NCBI GenBank assembly: GCA_029261715.1
Contig: JAJDAT010000005.1
Coordinates: forward strand, 256,487-320,486
From: Nitrospinia bacterium
Lineage (GTDB): Bacteria > Nitrospinota > Nitrospinia > Nitrospinales > JAJDAT01
Direction of reading: 5' to 3'
DNA length: 64,000 nucleotides
Shown: positions 97 through 8,272 of the stretch, piece by piece
Layout: each line of letters starts with the position of its first letter
How positions within the stretch are numbered: the first letter of the stretch is position 1
The notes under the pieces: model-generated
Seen by the model: only the letters and a program-made list of their open reading frames with translations
What the model was told of the DNA's origin: nothing
Database searches by the model: none
Program-made: the position numbers and the translations under genes

Positions 97-1452
97 ATGA
101 GTTATGTGGAAGACGCGAGTTCAACCCAGGTTTTAGAAGGTAGCTTCAAGATAGAAAAAACGCCGTTAGATGCCGTTCAAGACCTTTTTGAGCTTGATGA
201 CCTGACGGATGATGAAGCTCAAATGATTCGGGAATGGGAGAACCTATTGTTGGAGTTGACTCCAGTATTGAGAATTGACGAATGGAAACGCGCTCAAAGA
301 ATGATCCGTCTGCAATTATCCAAAAGAGAGAGTAGGGGAGAGAACTTAAACGCTTTTAAACAAACAAAAAGTCATATTGATCCCGCAGGCAAGCGAGTCT
401 CTGGAAGACTGCAAACTAAAATGCTTGAATATAAAACGCCTCATATTTGGTCGACCCTACAAATACCTCTCACCGAAAATTGTAATTTGCTTTGTAAGCA
501 TTGCCCCAGGACTCAAAAGTATTTAAGTAAAGATATTCCTTTTGAAGCTTTTCAGGAATATTTATCCAGATTTTCGGCGGATAGATTTAAAAAGGTATTG
601 CTAAGTGATTTTGGCGAGCCGTTTTTGAGAAAAGATATTTTAAGGATTTTGCGTTTTGTAAAAGAAAGAGGATTTCATAATGTAGAAGTCGTTACAACGG
701 GAAACCTGATGAACGAGAATATGCGCAAAACGATTTTAGAAGAAGGTTTATTGGGGAAACTTATGATCTCTATTGAATCGGCGTCAAAAGATCTTTATGA
801 AGATATCAGAGGATCAGATTTTGAGTCGATGAAGAGCTGCATAGGAGACTTTATTCAATACAGGAACCAAATTGGATCGAAGAAACCAGAAGTATTTTTT
901 AACGCAGTATGTATGAAAGACAACGCTCACGAGCTTCCAATGATAATGGACTTAGCGGCAGAGCTTGGAGTTGATCATGTGCTGTTTGTTCATTTGAATG
1001 GGATTGTTAGCGATTTCTCAAGCGAAGAAAGAAGCGGGTTCGAAGAAAAAATGCTTTTTTCAAAAAATCATTTAAACACGTGCGATCCAGAATACGTTAA
1101 AGAAATTTTTAGTAAAGTTCATGAGAAATCCATTAAATATGGAATAGGGTATTTACCTCCGGAAGATTATTTAGAAACGGCAAATCCATTTGGTATAGAC
1201 GAATTGGCTGAACCCTGGCCAGAAAGTTCTAAGTGTGACCGTCCTTACGAGTGGGTACAAGTTCAATCCGACGGCAATGTTTATCCGTGTTGCCAAATAG
1301 CGCAGCGCTATTCAGTAGGAAATGTTCAAGATAAAACGTTTGAAGATGTTTGGAAGAGTCCTGAGTTTGTTGAATTCCGAGAAGGATTAAAAAACGGAAA
1401 TCCCAACAGATGGTGTGAAGTCTGCAACATCTATAATGGCAAACGATTTTAA
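97..1452 (+). CDS. Radical SAM protein with SPASM-like C-terminal domain
   Basis: ORF; CNLLCKHCPR (CxxxCxxC) radical SAM motif; C-terminal Cys cluster GNVYPCCQIAQRYSVGNVQDKTFEDVWKS...WCEVCN typical of SPASM. Confidence 0.9.
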   Translation: MSYVEDASSTQVLEGSFKIEKTPLDAVQDLFELDDLTDDEAQMIREWENLLLELTPVLRIDEWKRAQRMIRLQLSKRESRGENLNAFKQTKSHIDPAGKRVSGRLQTKMLEYKTPHIWSTLQIPLTENCNLLCKHCPRTQKYLSKDIPFEAFQEYLSRFSADRFKKVLLSDFGEPFLRKDILRILRFVKERGFHNVEVVTTGNLMNENMRKTILEEGLLGKLMISIESASKDLYEDIRGSDFESMKSCIGDFIQYRNQIGSKKPEVFFNAVCMKDNAHELPMIMDLAAELGVDHVLFVHLNGIVSDFSSEERSGFEEKMLFSKNHLNTCDPEYVKEIFSKVHEKSIKYGIGYLPPEDYLETANPFGIDELAEPWPESSKCDRPYEWVQVQSDGNVYPCCQIAQRYSVGNVQDKTFEDVWKSPEFVEFREGLKNGNPNRWCEVCNIYNGKRF

Positions 1453-1513: not shown

Positions 1514-2404
1514 TTAACCAAAATTCAAAAGTTCATGAGTCATAAGTAAATCCGCTACTGGATTGGCAATCGTTCGTGGAGACGACACTAAAAAAATTTC
1601 TTCATACACTCCTTCTAAATTCCCTAGGGCCGTCATCTTTTGTTCTTGGGCAAAAGATTGGCTGACAAAATCAGGCAAAGCGACGAGTCCCATTCCCCTG
1701 CTAGCCATTAATTTCTGAACGCTAGTATCTTGAGTTTCCATTACTACCTCAATATTAATTTGATTAGAACGGAAATAGTGATCTAAGTCGTGGCGACGTT
1801 TGCTGTGAAATGTGGGCAGTAAGAAGGGCTGGCCTTGAAGGGATTTTGGAAATCCTTTTTTAAGATGGAGAAAACCTTGCGTCCCAAAAACTGATAGCGG
1901 ATGTCGTCCTAATGATCGAATAGAGAAGCGACGCAAATCTCCTACGTCGGGTTGATAGTCGGCAACTACAAGGTCGACTCTATGTGAAAGCAACTCTCGA
2001 AACAAGAGATCCCCTGTGCCTTCTAGAACCGTTATGGTACATGGTCCCCATGTTAAGGCTGCATCGGTAAGGTGTCGGATTACTGTTTTCGGGATGCTGT
2101 CAAGAACTCCAATTTCCAAATGAACTTTTCGCAAAAAAGATCCCGCCTGCAACACTTCTTTAAGTTCGTCGCCTAAACCAAAAATCTGATTGGCAAACTC
2201 CAAAGTGACCTGGCCTGCCTGAGTTAGTATGAGTCTGCGGTTTTTTCGTTCAAATAAAAGATGCCCCAATTGCTCTTCCAATTGCTTGATTTGAATGCTG
2301 ATGGCAGGTTGGCCCAAGTTTAGCTTTCCTGATGCTTTGGCAATGCTACCTTCCTGAGCTACCACTTGGAAGTAATGTAAATGCTGATAATTCAACCAAA
2401 TCAT
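1514..2404 (-). CDS. LysR-family transcriptional regulator (NhaR-like)
   Basis: N-terminal HTH NYQHLHYFQVVAQEGSIAKASGKLNLGQPAISIQIKQLEEQLGHLLFER; LysR substrate domain length. Confidence 0.9.
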   Translation of the reverse strand: MIWLNYQHLHYFQVVAQEGSIAKASGKLNLGQPAISIQIKQLEEQLGHLLFERKNRRLILTQAGQVTLEFANQIFGLGDELKEVLQAGSFLRKVHLEIGVLDSIPKTVIRHLTDAALTWGPCTITVLEGTGDLLFRELLSHRVDLVVADYQPDVGDLRRFSIRSLGRHPLSVFGTQGFLHLKKGFPKSLQGQPFLLPTFHSKRRHDLDHYFRSNQINIEVVMETQDTSVQKLMASRGMGLVALPDFVSQSFAQEQKMTALGNLEGVYEEIFLVSSPRTIANPVADLLMTHELLNFG

Positions 2405-2413
2405 AAAAGCCTA

Positions 2414-2494
2414 ATAGTTTAATTTTTTTAAAGTATAGCATAAAAAGATTTAAGTAACTTTAATGAATTAAAAGGCTCTAAATATTCAAAGCTT
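2414..2494 (+). promoter_or_regulatory. Candidate regulatory element, copy 1 (ungapped similarity to 3098-3178)
   Basis: atagtttaa-N17-ataaaaagatttaag-N22-tctaaat; identical spacing of all blocks in copy 2; lies between the divergent LysR gene and the small-protein gene. Confidence 0.5.
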
Positions 2495-2547
2495 CTATCT
2501 GCTTGGTAGAAGTAAGAATACTTAATCTTAACCAGGGAGAAGTTGCA

Positions 2548-2898
2548 ATGTACAGACAAACGAAGGTCTTGATGGCAATGTTAGTATCGCTGTGTTTTCT
2601 GGTGACACCTATGTTGGCGTTTGCTGGAGGTTACCCTCAGGGCGATAATTCCGCTGCTAATGTCGGTGTTCCAAAAGGATGGGTACCAAAGGTTGAGGGG
2701 CAATCTGGCAGGAAACCTGGCGGGAATAAGTTTCCTCCGGGCGACAACTCTGCCGCTAATGTTGGTGTTCCAAAGGCCTGGGAACCTACCTCGGAGGCAG
2801 CCAGTTGGGGGTCGAGCGGTTCGCAAAGTAGCAGGCTACCAAAAGAAGGCAACGACCGCGCCAATGTGGGAGTTCCTAAAGTCTGGATGCCTAAGTAA
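2548..2898 (+). CDS. Small secreted protein with three GDNSAANVGVPKxWxP repeats
   Basis: ATG at 2548 preceded by agggaga; Sec signal peptide MYRQTKVLMAMLVSLCFLVTPMLAFAGG; three internal repeats. Track ORF starts at 2503. Confidence 0.75.
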   Translation: MYRQTKVLMAMLVSLCFLVTPMLAFAGGYPQGDNSAANVGVPKGWVPKVEGQSGRKPGGNKFPPGDNSAANVGVPKAWEPTSEAASWGSSGSQSSRLPKEGNDRANVGVPKVWMPK

Positions 2899-2916
2899 GG
2901 GTTGAATAATAAGGAA

Positions 2917-2955
2917 GAATTCTCCTGAGAATCATTCTTAGGAGAGTTCTTTCTT
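2917..2955 (+). terminator. Rho-independent terminator-like hairpin after the small-protein gene
   Basis: gaattctcctgagaat / attcttaggagagttc near-perfect inverted repeat followed by tttctt. Confidence 0.6.
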
Positions 2956-3097
2956 GGGATTAAATGTCTGGCGTCAAATTAAAATAGACCAAAGCGTGTG
3001 AACGACATCATCAAAAAATGGTTTCCAGCGAGTAAAAAACTAAGAGATTCTTTCTGAAGTACTTTTGTAAAAAGGAGAATTATAGGGGGGAGGAATT

Positions 3098-3178
3098 ATA
3101 GTTTAACTTTTTTAAGGGGTTTTATAAAAAGATTTAAGCAATTTAAATCATAAGAACGCTTCTAAATGCTTTAAACTT
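3098..3178 (+). promoter_or_regulatory. Candidate regulatory element, copy 2, upstream of the HlyD/TolC/ABC operon
   Basis: About 58/81 identical positions (hand count, ungapped) with 2414-2494, including the exact 15-mer ataaaaagatttaag. Confidence 0.5.
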
Positions 3179-3413
3179 ATTAGGATGAGACCTCTATTAC
3201 TAACTAAAAATACCAAAAATTCCGATAGTTTAATTAAATGATGTAAATTAACTTATAATTAATATAAAATAGATAGAATCACTAAAATTATAAAAAAATT
3301 TAAAGCTTGTTTGGGGTAGTTGTATGTACCGTTCCCTATCCTCAAAAATTGGTTCACATGAGGAACAAGTTTAAGAAATTATTCTTGCTGATTTCTTCTA
3401 TGCCAGAAAAATA

Positions 3414-4841
3414 ATGACCGAACAAAAATTGGAAAAAATTCCAGCTATTGACGAGTCTGACCAGAAATATAGTGGGTTTACCGAGGATTTATTGGCTAGT
3501 AACAAGCCGTTAAAATCTAAAAACTTAGTCAAAATTCCTCGACGTTTGTACACGTGGTCACGATTCGCTCTCATTTTCTTTTTATTTTTTGCGACTATTG
3601 TGAGTTTTGTGCCTTGGACGCAGACAGTAACGGTTCAAGGCAAGCTGTCGGCATATTTCCCGGCAGAACGATCGCAAGAGATTCATGCGCAGATTAATGG
3701 GAGCATACAACATTGGCATGTCAATGAAGGAGATATGGTTAAGAAAGGGGACTTGGTTCTTGAATTGGCAGATATTAGTCCTAAGTTCATGGCTCCCGAT
3801 CTTTTGCAACGATTGGATCAATCTCGTGAAGCGTTGGAGCAACAACGACAAGCAGCCTTGGAGCGCGCAAAAATCTTTGCGGACCGAATAGATGAAATGA
3901 GGGCCTTGGCCGAAGCGGCTACAGGTTCGGCCGAGGCCAGAGTATCCGAAGCTGACAATAAAGTGATAGGTACAGAGTTACAAGCGACTCCAGCCAAAGG
4001 AGCTGAGGAAACCGCCGCGTTAAATTTAGAACGATCGCGTTTGCTTGAAGCGCAGGGATTAATCTCAAGACGCGAATTGGAACTTGCTATTCAAGCGACA
4101 AAGGAAGCTGAGGCAGGTTTGAAAGCGAATGAAGCTAAGTTACGCGAAGTTCAAGAAGGGCGCCGCGCTTTAGCTTACAATCGTGAAAAAATCGACGCTG
4201 AGTTGGTGCAAAGTTTATTAAATACTAGATCAAAGCGAGCCTCGGCGCTTAGTGATGCCGCCAAAGCTTCGAAGGAATTAGCTGATTTAGAATTGACTCG
4301 ATCTATTGTGGTTCAGAGACGTGTTGCCAGCCGCGTTATCGCTCCTCTTGATGGAACGATAGTGCGTTTGACGCCAATTGGTCCTAGTGAAATCGTGCAT
4401 CCAGGAGATTTGTTGTTTACCATTGTGCCCAAGAGTCCAACGCCAGCGGTTGAAATGTGGGCGAATGACATTGACGCTCCTCTCCTGAGACAAGGCCGCC
4501 CAGTTCGGCTACTTTTTCAAGGAGTCCCTGCTATTCCTCTTCCGGCATGGCCGGAATTGATGGCTGGTACTTATGACGGTTTTATTCAAGTGGTGGATCA
4601 ATCCGCATCGGCAAATGGACAGTTTCGTTTATGGGTAGTACCCGATACTCAACGTCGAAAATGGCCGCCTCAGTTACATGTACGGCAGGGAACGCAGGTG
4701 ATGGGCTGGGTGATCTTAAATCGAGTTCCTTTGTGGTATGAGATGTGGCGCCGTTTTAATTTGTTCCCAGCAGACTATAAATCAGGCAGTAGAAGTTTGA
4801 TGGACGTCTTTTTGTCAAAAGCTGGACGACCGGGTAAGTAA
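3414..4841 (+). CDS. HlyD-family periplasmic adaptor / membrane fusion protein
   Basis: N-terminal TM segment, biotinyl-lipoyl-like halves (GSIQHWHVNEGDMVKKGDLVLEL; SRVIAPLDGTIVRL), long coiled coil. Confidence 0.85.
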   Translation: MTEQKLEKIPAIDESDQKYSGFTEDLLASNKPLKSKNLVKIPRRLYTWSRFALIFFLFFATIVSFVPWTQTVTVQGKLSAYFPAERSQEIHAQINGSIQHWHVNEGDMVKKGDLVLELADISPKFMAPDLLQRLDQSREALEQQRQAALERAKIFADRIDEMRALAEAATGSAEARVSEADNKVIGTELQATPAKGAEETAALNLERSRLLEAQGLISRRELELAIQATKEAEAGLKANEAKLREVQEGRRALAYNREKIDAELVQSLLNTRSKRASALSDAAKASKELADLELTRSIVVQRRVASRVIAPLDGTIVRLTPIGPSEIVHPGDLLFTIVPKSPTPAVEMWANDIDAPLLRQGRPVRLLFQGVPAIPLPAWPELMAGTYDGFIQVVDQSASANGQFRLWVVPDTQRRKWPPQLHVRQGTQVMGWVILNRVPLWYEMWRRFNLFPADYKSGSRSLMDVFLSKAGRPGK

Positions 4842-4907
4842 TGGAAGATTGCATCTTATTTAGAGATATCAATTTACGGATAAATAAGTCTTGCGAGAGG
4901 AGACATT

Positions 4908-6365
4908 ATGAGAGGTAAGCAAATTGCTGTTGTGGGGGCGTTGATTCTATTTACCGCCGCTCCTCTGTGGGCAAAAGAAATTTTGCAAATGTCTCTAAAT
5001 AAAACTCCGACTTCAATTCTGACCCTCCAGTCGGTGTTAAAACGGGTGGAAGAAGGACACCCGCTTCTACGAGGAAGCCAAACGGAAAAGATGGTGGCTA
5101 GCGGTAAACTGCTTAAGGCTTTGGGGCAATTTGAACCCACTTTTGTTAACGATTTTGAATTGGAACGGCTTGCAAAAGATGATCGAACTAAGAGCGTTGG
5201 ATTTAATGACACGTTTGTGGAGATGCTTCATCCATGGGGCATCAGAGGGTTTGCCGGTTTTCGAACTGGGATTGGCGATGTAAAACCAGCAGATTTAGGT
5301 ATTAATGATTCCAATCAGCCTTTGTTAGGTATCGCAATTCCCCTTCTTCGAGGATTAATGACAAATCGGGCTAGCGCCAAATTAAAGAAATCCTCGCTGG
5401 CGGAAAAACAAGCGAATCTGCAAATCCAGCAAGCGCGGCAAGATTTGTATCTTGGCGCCGCAAGACAATATTGGAATTGGGTGGCGGCATGGAAGCTTAT
5501 GGATTTACAAAAAAATGCGGTTGCTGTGGCGCAAGAACGTCTAGTCCAATTAACGAAACAAGTCGAAGCTGGCGCAAGAGCAAAGTTTGATATCGTCGAA
5601 GCAAACCAAGAAGTGCAACGGAGAAGAGATAAACTAATTAAGACGAGACGCAAGGTTGATGAAGAGCAATTTAAACTCGCGTTGTTCTTGTGGGAAAACG
5701 ACAACTTAATTGTTCCCGATAATTATAAGGCTCCCTTATTCCCATTAACGCAACTAGATAATTCATTAACTGCATTAGAGAGAGGTAAACGGCGCGCTGT
5801 CACACTCCGTCCGGAATTACATTTAGTGAGTTTGGAAGCTGAGTTTAATCATATCGATTTAGAGGTTGCAGAAAATAATTTACTTCCAGATCTGTCTGTA
5901 GAGGTTGAGCCCTCCAGGAAGCCAGACGAGTTTGTCTTGGGTCTGGGGTATCGATTTGGAGTTAAATTTAGTATGCCGTTTTTTCAGCGTGGAGCTCGCG
6001 GAGATCTTCTCAAGAAGAGGGGCAAAGCTCAACGGTTAAGGCTTCTTCAGCGGTATCGACTAAAACAAGTGACGATGGATGTGGCGAACGCTACTTCAGC
6101 CGTTATGCGCGCTGATGAGCGCATTAAAGTTTTGCAGAAGTCCCTTGAATTTGCGCAAAAATTAGAAAAGGGAGAACGCACTCGTTTGAAACTAGGCGCT
6201 ACGACTTTGCTCATTGTTAATCTTCGAGAGCGTAATGTTCTTAAAGCCGCCGAGGGGCTTATAACAGTTAAAGCCGATTATCAAAAAGCCCTTGCCTTAT
6301 ATAAATGGTCGACCGGGGAGTGGGTGAATGGATCATCTCCTATTGACGATCAGAGGAGGCAATAG
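4908..6365 (+). CDS. TolC-family outer membrane efflux protein
   Basis: Signal peptide, TolC-type helical repeats, operon position after HlyD. Confidence 0.8.
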   Translation: MRGKQIAVVGALILFTAAPLWAKEILQMSLNKTPTSILTLQSVLKRVEEGHPLLRGSQTEKMVASGKLLKALGQFEPTFVNDFELERLAKDDRTKSVGFNDTFVEMLHPWGIRGFAGFRTGIGDVKPADLGINDSNQPLLGIAIPLLRGLMTNRASAKLKKSSLAEKQANLQIQQARQDLYLGAARQYWNWVAAWKLMDLQKNAVAVAQERLVQLTKQVEAGARAKFDIVEANQEVQRRRDKLIKTRRKVDEEQFKLALFLWENDNLIVPDNYKAPLFPLTQLDNSLTALERGKRRAVTLRPELHLVSLEAEFNHIDLEVAENNLLPDLSVEVEPSRKPDEFVLGLGYRFGVKFSMPFFQRGARGDLLKKRGKAQRLRLLQRYRLKQVTMDVANATSAVMRADERIKVLQKSLEFAQKLEKGERTRLKLGATTLLIVNLRERNVLKAAEGLITVKADYQKALALYKWSTGEWVNGSSPIDDQRRQ

Positions 6366-6372
6366 CAAAATT

Positions 6373-8028
6373 ATGACTGTTCCTTCTCTAAGAGAAAACC
6401 TGGATCGCCTTGGTTCCTTTCTGAGTCAAGACCGCTCTATTATTTTACCGATTTTTACCTACGCTATTGTGGTTGGTTTGTTTTCTCTTATTATTCCTTT
6501 AACGGTCCAGGAATTAGTAAACACGTTTGCATTTGCTATATCTCCCGTAATGGTCGTTACGCTTGTTGGCATTATGGCTGGCATCCTATTGTTTGTGGGA
6601 ATATTCAAAATTTTGCAATTCTACGCGATGGACATTCTGGAAAGGCGAATCTTTGTTCGCATGGCTCTAAGGCTGGCCCAGGTGTTGCCGCAATTTAAAG
6701 AGAAAACATTTCGATCTGATTCTGTAAATCTTTTTCTTGAAACGGTGTTTCTCCAAAGGTCTCTTTCTAGTCTCTTTGTGGATCTTATAAATGTGTTGGT
6801 TGGCGGGTTTATTGGAATGACCTTGCTCGCTTTGTATCACCCATATTTTGTGTTCTTTGACGTCGCGTTAATTTTATCCGTGATTATTATCGGAATTTTA
6901 GGGAAAGGTGGTTTGGGAAGAACGATTCACATGTCTGAAACAAAATATGAAACGTTTCATTGGTTCCAAGAAGTTGCCGATAACCTTTTGCATTTCAAAG
7001 CCGCTAATTGTTCAAATCTTATTCTGCAAAAAGTCGATACATTAGCGGAGGATTATGTTCGAGCGCGTCAATCTCGGTTTAGCGTTTTGTTGCGCCAATA
7101 TATCGGTTCTATTTCGCTCCAAGTTTTTCTACACACGGGATTGTTAGGAACTGCCGGATGGTTATTAAGTCAAGATGAATTGACCTTGGGGCAACTAGTT
7201 GCGGCAGAAGTGATAATCGCCAGTTTGCTTCTTAACATTGATTCGGTAATGAAACGTTCGTACGTCGTGTTTTATTTTTTCACGGCTTTAGCTGAACTCG
7301 ATCATTTATTTTCTTTGCCTCAAGATAAAGCGGGCAATGAATCGGGTCTATCCGTTCCTCAGTCCGATGCCGCTGGGCTGCATCTTAAATGCAACCAATT
7401 GAATTGGGAGAGCGACACAGAGTCGCTTCCTAAAGAAATTTCTTTTGAAGCTTTTCCAGGAGAAAAATGGGCGTTGATATGTGGGACCGAATGGGCGCGT
7501 AAACACGTATCGTTATTATTAGCAGGTTTAGATCAACCTTCATCGGGGGCTGTGAAATATAATGAGGTTGATTTAAGAAACCTCTCTACGGATCAAATTG
7601 GTTCCCAGCGAAGCATTCTTTTTTCGCGAGATCTCACCTTATTTAAAGGATCGGTAGTTGAGAATATCAAGATGGGACGGCCAGGCATAGAATCCGAAGA
7701 TTTGTTATGGGCGTTATCTTTTTCGCAATTAGATAAAGAACTCGAAGCATTTCCCGATGGTTTAGAAACGATTGTCCATGAAGGCGGTAAAGAGTTCACT
7801 CTCAGCCAACGTTTAAGAATTTTGTTGGCAAGAGCGATAGTCACGCGCCCGTCTCTTTTGATTTTAGATGGAGCTATGCAGGAAGTTCCCGATGATATCC
7901 GAGAAACCCTTTTGCATCGCCTTAGTTCTAGCGATTGCCCTTGGACGTTGATCATTGTCACCACAGACCAACGTGCAAAAACTTTTGTTGATAAGCATTT
8001 ATCCCTTTCTGATCTCTCACAGGAATAA
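6373..8028 (+). CDS. ABC exporter-type protein (TMD+NBD) with degenerate nucleotide-binding domain
   Basis: ABC exporter TM region followed by NBD-like fold; Walker A, signature, Walker B Glu and H-loop all substituted. ATG at 6373 avoids overlap with TolC (track ORF starts at 6328). Confidence 0.8.
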   Translation: MTVPSLRENLDRLGSFLSQDRSIILPIFTYAIVVGLFSLIIPLTVQELVNTFAFAISPVMVVTLVGIMAGILLFVGIFKILQFYAMDILERRIFVRMALRLAQVLPQFKEKTFRSDSVNLFLETVFLQRSLSSLFVDLINVLVGGFIGMTLLALYHPYFVFFDVALILSVIIIGILGKGGLGRTIHMSETKYETFHWFQEVADNLLHFKAANCSNLILQKVDTLAEDYVRARQSRFSVLLRQYIGSISLQVFLHTGLLGTAGWLLSQDELTLGQLVAAEVIIASLLLNIDSVMKRSYVVFYFFTALAELDHLFSLPQDKAGNESGLSVPQSDAAGLHLKCNQLNWESDTESLPKEISFEAFPGEKWALICGTEWARKHVSLLLAGLDQPSSGAVKYNEVDLRNLSTDQIGSQRSILFSRDLTLFKGSVVENIKMGRPGIESEDLLWALSFSQLDKELEAFPDGLETIVHEGGKEFTLSQRLRILLARAIVTRPSLLILDGAMQEVPDDIRETLLHRLSSSDCPWTLIIVTTDQRAKTFVDKHLSLSDLSQE

Positions 8029-8060: not shown

Positions 8061-8272
8061 ACCGCAAAGATGCTAAGGACGCAAAGAAGGTCAAGAAACG
8101 AGTTTAGTGGCGCTACCGCTTTGCTTTCAAGTTTTAAATAGTGCATGAAAACTAAAAATCCGCTTTGTTCAAACTCATCCCTCTAGCTTAGCCTGCCCTG
8201 AACTTGTCGAAGGGTCGCCCCGATTTAAATAATTGTCATGCTGAGCTTGTCGAAGCGCGACCACCTTTTATA
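8061..8272 (+). repeat. Dispersed repeats: CGCAAAG-type element (8061-8090) and GTCATGCTGAGCTTGTCGAAGCGCGACCACC element (8237-8272)
   Basis: Both modules recur in inverted orientation at 32440-32515. Confidence 0.6.

What the first reader, a model, noticed from the sequence alone, without database searches (positions are those of the whole stretch)
2414..8028. Regulated tripartite export locus (LysR / small repeat protein / HlyD / TolC / ABC pseudo-exporter)
A divergent LysR gene, a small Sec-signal repeat protein, and HlyD + TolC + ABC exporter genes form one compact unit. The same ~80-bp element precedes both the small protein and the export operon. Each part belongs to a known family, but the combination, with a secreted repeat peptide and a catalytically degenerate ABC subunit, does not match a standard type I secretion or efflux module I know. 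A coherent reading is an envelope export/signalling system in which the small protein is a co-regulated partner or product.
Basis: partly seen in the sequence, partly recalled or inferred. Interest (0 to 1): 0.72.

Follow-up and report, generated by a model that had tools for sequence, protein, structure and literature searches.

The report
LysR-controlled exporter with dead ATPase
The locus is a regulated three-part pump across the cell envelope whose motor protein has lost the residues for burning ATP; the same loss recurs in relatives from several bacterial phyla, while the small secreted repeat protein next to it is a local add-on rather than the pump's fixed partner.

Summary
The window carries a divergent NhaR-like LysR gene, a 116-aa Sec-signal protein with three repeats, and a HlyD-TolC-ABC operon; a real ~80-bp element precedes both the small gene and hlyD. 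The interpretation splits.

(1) The element is very probably the LysR operator: it is conserved upstream of lysR orthologues in six other genomes.

(2) Nothing found makes the small protein the exporter's partner or product. Two paralogues sit elsewhere in the same genome without an exporter, no orthologue was found in 60 relatives, and all six orthologous exporter operons in the phylum lack it. Two have a beta-carbonic-anhydrase-like gene in its place and one has that gene's remnant.

(3) The degenerate ABC subunit is the interesting part. About 100 relatives in Nitrospirota, Nitrospinota and Nitrococcus, and distant ones in other Gammaproteobacteria, Alphaproteobacteria and Bacteroidota, sit with HlyD (usually also TolC). 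None has an intact set of ATPase motifs, and some Nitrospira carry two degenerate copies in tandem. The NBD is under purifying selection (dN/dS 0.01-0.28).

Best reading: an LTTR-controlled tripartite conduit whose inner-membrane subunit is a conserved pseudo-ATPase. Substrate and energy source are unknown. I found no description of this family in the papers searched.

The parts
1514..2404 (-). LysR-type regulator, NhaR-like, divergent from the unit
   Evidence: Pfam HTH_1 1e-20, LysR_substrate 3e-17; NhaR model 133.6 bits, below its cut-off of 219; orthologues 79-81% identical divergent from the exporter in three relatives
2414..2494 (.). operator A: ATAGTTTAA-N5-TTAAAGTAT dyad plus ATTTAAGxAACTTxAAT
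   Evidence: conserved upstream of lysR in six other genomes; 81-bp repeat
2548..2898 (+). small Sec-signal protein, three repeats (GDNSxANVGVPKxW)
   Evidence: two paralogues in own genome; no Pfam or NCBIfam family
2910..2956 (+). 22-bp hairpin between small gene and hlyD; probable transcript end of the small gene
   Evidence: fold -30.6 kcal/mol, z -6.2; the terminator consensus scan did not score it
3098..3178 (.). operator B, second diverged copy, ahead of hlyD
   Evidence: 72% identical to A; no second copy seen in the relatives' aligned intergenic regions
3414..4841 (+). HlyD-family periplasmic adaptor
   Evidence: HlyD_3 2e-12; best NCBIfam type_I_hlyD 70.7 bits, cut-off 208.65
4908..6365 (+). 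TolC-family outer-membrane channel
   Evidence: OEP 1.2e-33
6373..8028 (+). pseudo-ATPase ABC exporter half-transporter
   Evidence: motif table; AlphaFold model pLDDT 74, pTM 0.69, Foldseek top hits TM287/288, PCAT1, IrtAB, with HlyB at rank 26

Best explanation
The unit is a tripartite trans-envelope conduit (adaptor, outer-membrane channel, exporter-fold inner-membrane dimer) under a divergent LysR-type regulator that binds operator A, and here also operator B. The inner-membrane subunit is a conserved pseudo-ATPase: its NBD is kept and selected for but should not hydrolyse ATP, so the pump is either a gated, gradient-driven conduit or takes energy from something else. The small repeat protein is a separately transcribed, co-regulated periplasmic protein that sits where relatives have a carbonic-anhydrase-like gene. 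Shown: genes, operator conservation, operon conservation, motif loss, purifying selection. Inferred: LysR binding, complex assembly, lack of ATP hydrolysis, transport itself.
For: HlyD-TolC-ABC (or TolC-ABC with HlyD on the other strand, or ABC-HlyD-TolC) stays together across phyla. All ~100 close relatives lack catalytic Glu, LSGGQ, Q-loop Gln and H-loop His; the catalytic Glu column is Gly in all 34 aligned. Two tandem ABC copies in many Nitrospira are both degenerate. NBD dN/dS 0.01-0.28, in the range of the TMD or up to about three and a half times it. Exporter fold predicted. Operator conserved. Three orthologous operons carry a CA-like gene or its remnant in place of the small gene.
Against: A canonical ABC partner encoded elsewhere was not excluded. 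Some Nitrospira members keep a GKT(T) Walker A and some distant members keep a Glu near Walker B, so ATP binding, or weak hydrolysis in a few, is possible. No substrate, expression or binding data. AlphaFold confidence is moderate (pLDDT 74).
Confidence: 0.5

Rival explanations
1. The pseudo-ABC is the degenerate half of a heterodimer whose catalytically competent half is encoded elsewhere in the genome, as in heterodimeric exporters with one degenerate site.
For: Degenerate sites paired with canonical ones are common; Pdr5 NBS1 has all motifs changed yet the pump works with a canonical NBS2 (PMC7756269). The own genome has several canonical ABC exporters.
Against: No canonical partner gene was seen beside any of the roughly 90 loci read; where two ABC genes sit in tandem both are degenerate. 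From general knowledge, in known pairs the degenerate half usually keeps Walker A.
Confidence: 0.25
2. The NBD is an ATP or ligand sensor that gates the conduit without hydrolysis; members with a remaining Walker A bind nucleotide.
For: Purifying selection on the NBD; GKTT kept in some Nitrospira; in many Nitrospira the next gene encodes a 4HB_MCP_1 sensory-domain membrane protein.
Against: The window and the other Nitrospinota members have no Walker A GK[ST] at all.
Confidence: 0.17
3. The small repeat protein is the exported product or an obligate partner of this exporter.
For: Adjacent and behind the same operator.
Against: Missing from all six orthologous operons; two paralogues lie away from any exporter; LysR orthologues stand opposite a different small triple-repeat protein in genomes where no exporter was found.
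Confidence: 0.08

Closest known systems
Type I secretion system (HlyB-HlyD-TolC; LssB/PrtD subfamilies)
   Same: three components, adaptor and outer-membrane channel families, exporter fold (HlyB among the structural matches)
   Different: no functional ATPase motifs, no C39 domain in the window protein, no RTX-type substrate gene seen beside it, all scores far below the NCBIfam T1SS cut-offs
Heterodimeric ABC exporters with one degenerate site (TM287/288, TmrAB, TAP, Pdr5)
   Same: degenerate motifs in a maintained NBD; TM287/288 is the top structural match
   Different: known cases keep one canonical site in the dimer; here no canonical partner is encoded beside the gene, and tandem copies are both degenerate
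MacAB-TolC
   Same: ABC-adaptor-channel tripartite system
   Different: MacB has another fold with the NBD at the N terminus (general knowledge); this ABC is a 6-TM exporter with a C-terminal NBD
NhaR / LysR-type regulators
   Same: best NCBIfam match is NhaR, full length; divergent gene with a dyad operator between
   Different: below the NhaR cut-off (133.6 vs 219 bits)

Membership tests
Type I secretion system | ABC, adaptor and outer-membrane channel genes together | tested here: met
Type I secretion system | ABC subunit with intact Walker A/B, signature and H-loop | tested here: not met
Type I secretion system | NCBIfam T1SS models reached at curated cut-off | tested here: not met
   LssB 127.6 vs 693.1; type_I_hlyD 70.7 vs 208.65; type_I_sec_TolC 65.4 vs 225.15
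Type I secretion system | linked substrate with C-terminal secretion signal | tested here: inconclusive
   no constant candidate substrate across loci; unlinked substrates not testable
Heterodimeric ABC exporter with one degenerate site | a canonical partner half-transporter | tested here: inconclusive
   none in cis; tandem copies both degenerate; partner in trans not excluded
MacAB-type pump | MacB fold with N-terminal NBD | tested here: not met
LysR-type regulator | LysR HTH and substrate-binding domains | tested here: met
NhaR | NCBIfam NhaR cut-off of 219 bits | tested here: not met
   133.6 bits

The most novel reading that the evidence does not exclude
A family of tripartite envelope transporters, found in Nitrospirota, Nitrospinota, Gamma- and Alphaproteobacteria and Bacteroidota, that moves or gates its substrate without ATP hydrolysis by its own ABC subunit, with a close clade that spread between Nitrospirota, Nitrospinota and Nitrococcus.
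Probability: 0.35. Interest if true: 0.85.

Novelty: new variant of a known kind. Interest (0 to 1): 0.6.

Why it matters
ABC exporters are defined by ATP hydrolysis. A widespread operonic family in which every sampled ABC subunit has lost that machinery, while its NBD remains under purifying selection and tied to HlyD (and mostly TolC), asks directly how such a pump is energised or whether it is a pump at all. Members occur in sequenced culturable strains (Nitrospira moscoviensis, Nitrococcus mobilis Nb-231, Novosphingobium aromaticivorans DSM 12444), so it can be tested. The close clade's spread between Nitrospirota, Nitrospinota and Nitrococcus, all phyla or genera known for nitrite oxidation, suggests a role in that lifestyle.

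Tried and rejected
A single-sequence scan of genome contigs found nothing; the alignment scan worked. Weak matches to the small protein in relatives: those read were unrelated proteins, such as a TPR-like protein. Homology between the window small protein and the DTGYPW triple-repeat proteins of G011/G014: not shown, only signal peptide and GYP align (hhalign probability 0.9%, E 0.064). A carbonic-anhydrase remnant in the window between lysR and hlyD: none found, though G046 has one. Element copies ahead of the two paralogous small genes: none. Strict restriction of the family to nitrite oxidizers: rejected, because distant degenerate relatives occur in other Gammaproteobacteria, Alphaproteobacteria and Bacteroidota, and the window genome itself gave no NxrB match. 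Literature: no held paper has nitrite-oxidizing, HlyD, TolC and ABC transporter together; searches for degenerate or inactive tripartite ABC subunits listed none that by title or abstract describes this family.

Full report
What is there. The window is G000:C5:256487-320486 of a 5.33-Mb genome. The searched relatives that match published contigs are Nitrospinaceae/Nitrospinota, so the phylum is Nitrospinota. Around the finding lie a radical-SAM/SPASM gene (97-1452), a NhaR-like LysR gene (1514-2404, minus), a 116-aa Sec-signal protein with three repeats (2548-2898), then HlyD (3414-4841), TolC (4908-6365) and an ABC half-transporter (6373-8028). The 81-bp repeat at 2414-2494 and 3098-3178 is real and found only there in the genome.

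The repeat is very probably the regulator's operator. LysR orthologues (73-81% identical) occur in six other genomes of the phylum: three divergent from the exporter (G054, G009, G046) and three with no exporter found (G011, G014, G021). All six have the same element just upstream of lysR, with a dyad ATAGTTTAA-N5-TTAAAxTAT and a second block ATTTAAGxAACTTAAAT that is best kept in the exporter-linked copies. Binding by LysR is inferred, not shown. In the window the element is present twice, once before the small gene and once before hlyD. A 22-bp hairpin lies between the two genes (2910-2956, z -6.2), so they are probably separate transcripts each with its own operator.

The small protein is an add-on. 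It has two paralogues in the same genome (59% and 50% identical), both away from any exporter, and no credible match in 60 relatives. None of the six orthologous exporter operons has it. In G054 and G009 the place between lysR and hlyD holds a beta-carbonic-anhydrase-like gene (Pro_CA 2e-23 and 8e-22; motif CFDSP instead of CxDxR), and in G046 it holds a remnant of that gene (74% over 35 aa, E 1e-14, in-frame stop). In G011 and G014, where no exporter was found, lysR stands opposite another small Sec-signal protein with three DTGYPW-type repeats at similar spacing. It is alike in plan but not demonstrably homologous. The steadier link is therefore regulator to small secreted protein.

The exporter is the find. 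HlyD-TolC-ABC orthologues (ABC 64-70% identical) occur in 6 of 76 other genomes of the phylum. A broad scan gave 80 loci, nearly all Nitrospira/Nitrospirales, Nitrospinaceae or Nitrococcus mobilis; two odd MAG labels (L086, L101) are probably binning errors. The scan depended on two conserved peptides, so it favours close relatives. The three genes stay together, in the order HlyD-TolC-ABC or TolC-ABC with HlyD on the opposite strand. Many Nitrospira have two ABC genes in tandem, and many have a membrane protein with a 4HB_MCP_1 domain next. Every full ABC protein in the motif table lacks the Q-loop Gln, the LSGGQ signature, the catalytic Glu and a canonical H-loop; Walker A is gone except for GK[ST] in some Nitrospira. 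Position 500 of the window protein (Glu in active ABCs) is Gly in all 34 members aligned.

The degeneracy is older and wider than that clade. Of 369 sampled Gammaproteobacteria, only Nitrococcus has a close member, but nine have distant ones (23-31% identity) in ABC-HlyD or ABC-HlyD-TolC operons, also degenerate. Replicons labelled as plasmids in Novosphingobium, Croceicoccus, Persicobacter, Aureibacter and Riemerella hold further members; the four with gene annotation show ABC-HlyD-TolC order, and all five read are degenerate to varying degrees. In a quick tree the close and gammaproteobacterial members all fall on one side of the canonical ABCs of the own genome (long branches, so monophyly is provisional), and the Nitrospinota group sits next to marine Nitrospirales, which suggests transfer between phyla. 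The NBD is under purifying selection: dN/dS 0.01-0.28, in the range of the TMD or up to about three and a half times it.

Fold. The AlphaFold model (34 sequences, pLDDT 74, pTM 0.69) has six long helical TM segments and a C-terminal NBD. The best PDB matches are TM287/288, PCAT1 and IrtAB, with HlyB-HlyD complexes among the top 30.

Link to nitrite oxidation. In 396 Nitrospirota genomes the pseudo-ABC is in 111 and NxrB in 93, with 70 shared (count). This is strongly associated but confounded by common descent and, probably, by nxr genes missing from MAGs. In Nitrospinota only 3 of the 7 carriers show NxrB, and the window genome shows none, so the window organism is not shown to be a nitrite oxidizer.

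Mechanism. Most likely the three proteins form a type-I-secretion-like conduit whose inner-membrane dimer does not hydrolyse ATP. It may be gated and driven by a gradient, or use another energy source. The main rival is an unlinked canonical ABC partner, as in Pdr5-like or TM287/288-like asymmetric pumps (PMC7756269). Everything beyond sequence, selection and predicted fold is inference.

Noticed in passing
L061:6969-7526, L062:5589-6146: Beta-carbonic-anhydrase-like protein (185 aa) with CxDxP in place of CxDxR, between lysR and hlyD in two relatives; a pseudogene remnant in a third (L063 gap).
   Followed up: partly
L240:7334-7693, L241:8773-9105: Another small Sec-signal protein with three DTGYPW-type repeats, divergent from the same LysR, in genomes where no exporter was found; further matches at G008 C5 and G011 C29.
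   Followed up: partly
L087:9934-10725 and 41 other Nitrospira loci: Membrane protein with a 4HB_MCP_1 sensory bundle, in most of these loci directly downstream of the pseudo-ABC gene(s); may be a subunit of the system.
   Followed up: partly
L110-L143 (e.g. L124:9860-13438): Two pseudo-ABC genes in tandem in many Nitrospira, both degenerate: a candidate all-degenerate heterodimer.
   Followed up: partly
L086, L101: Loci labelled Armatimonadetes and Acidimicrobiia carry Nitrospira-type operons; probably mis-binned contigs.
   Followed up: no
window 97-1452: Radical SAM/SPASM protein on the other side of lysR; no counterpart beside the lysR-linked orthologous operons.
   Followed up: no
window 8198-8270: Two copies of a CTGAxCTTGTCGAAG-type repeat downstream of the ABC gene; looks like a dispersed intergenic repeat.
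   Followed up: no
L005:283-6645: 2120-aa filamentous-haemagglutinin-like repeat protein about 3.3 kb from one small-protein paralogue.
   Followed up: no
G000 whole genome: No NxrB match at E 1e-60 in a 97% complete genome of this phylum; either nxr is missing from the assembly or the organism is not a nitrite oxidizer.
   Followed up: partly
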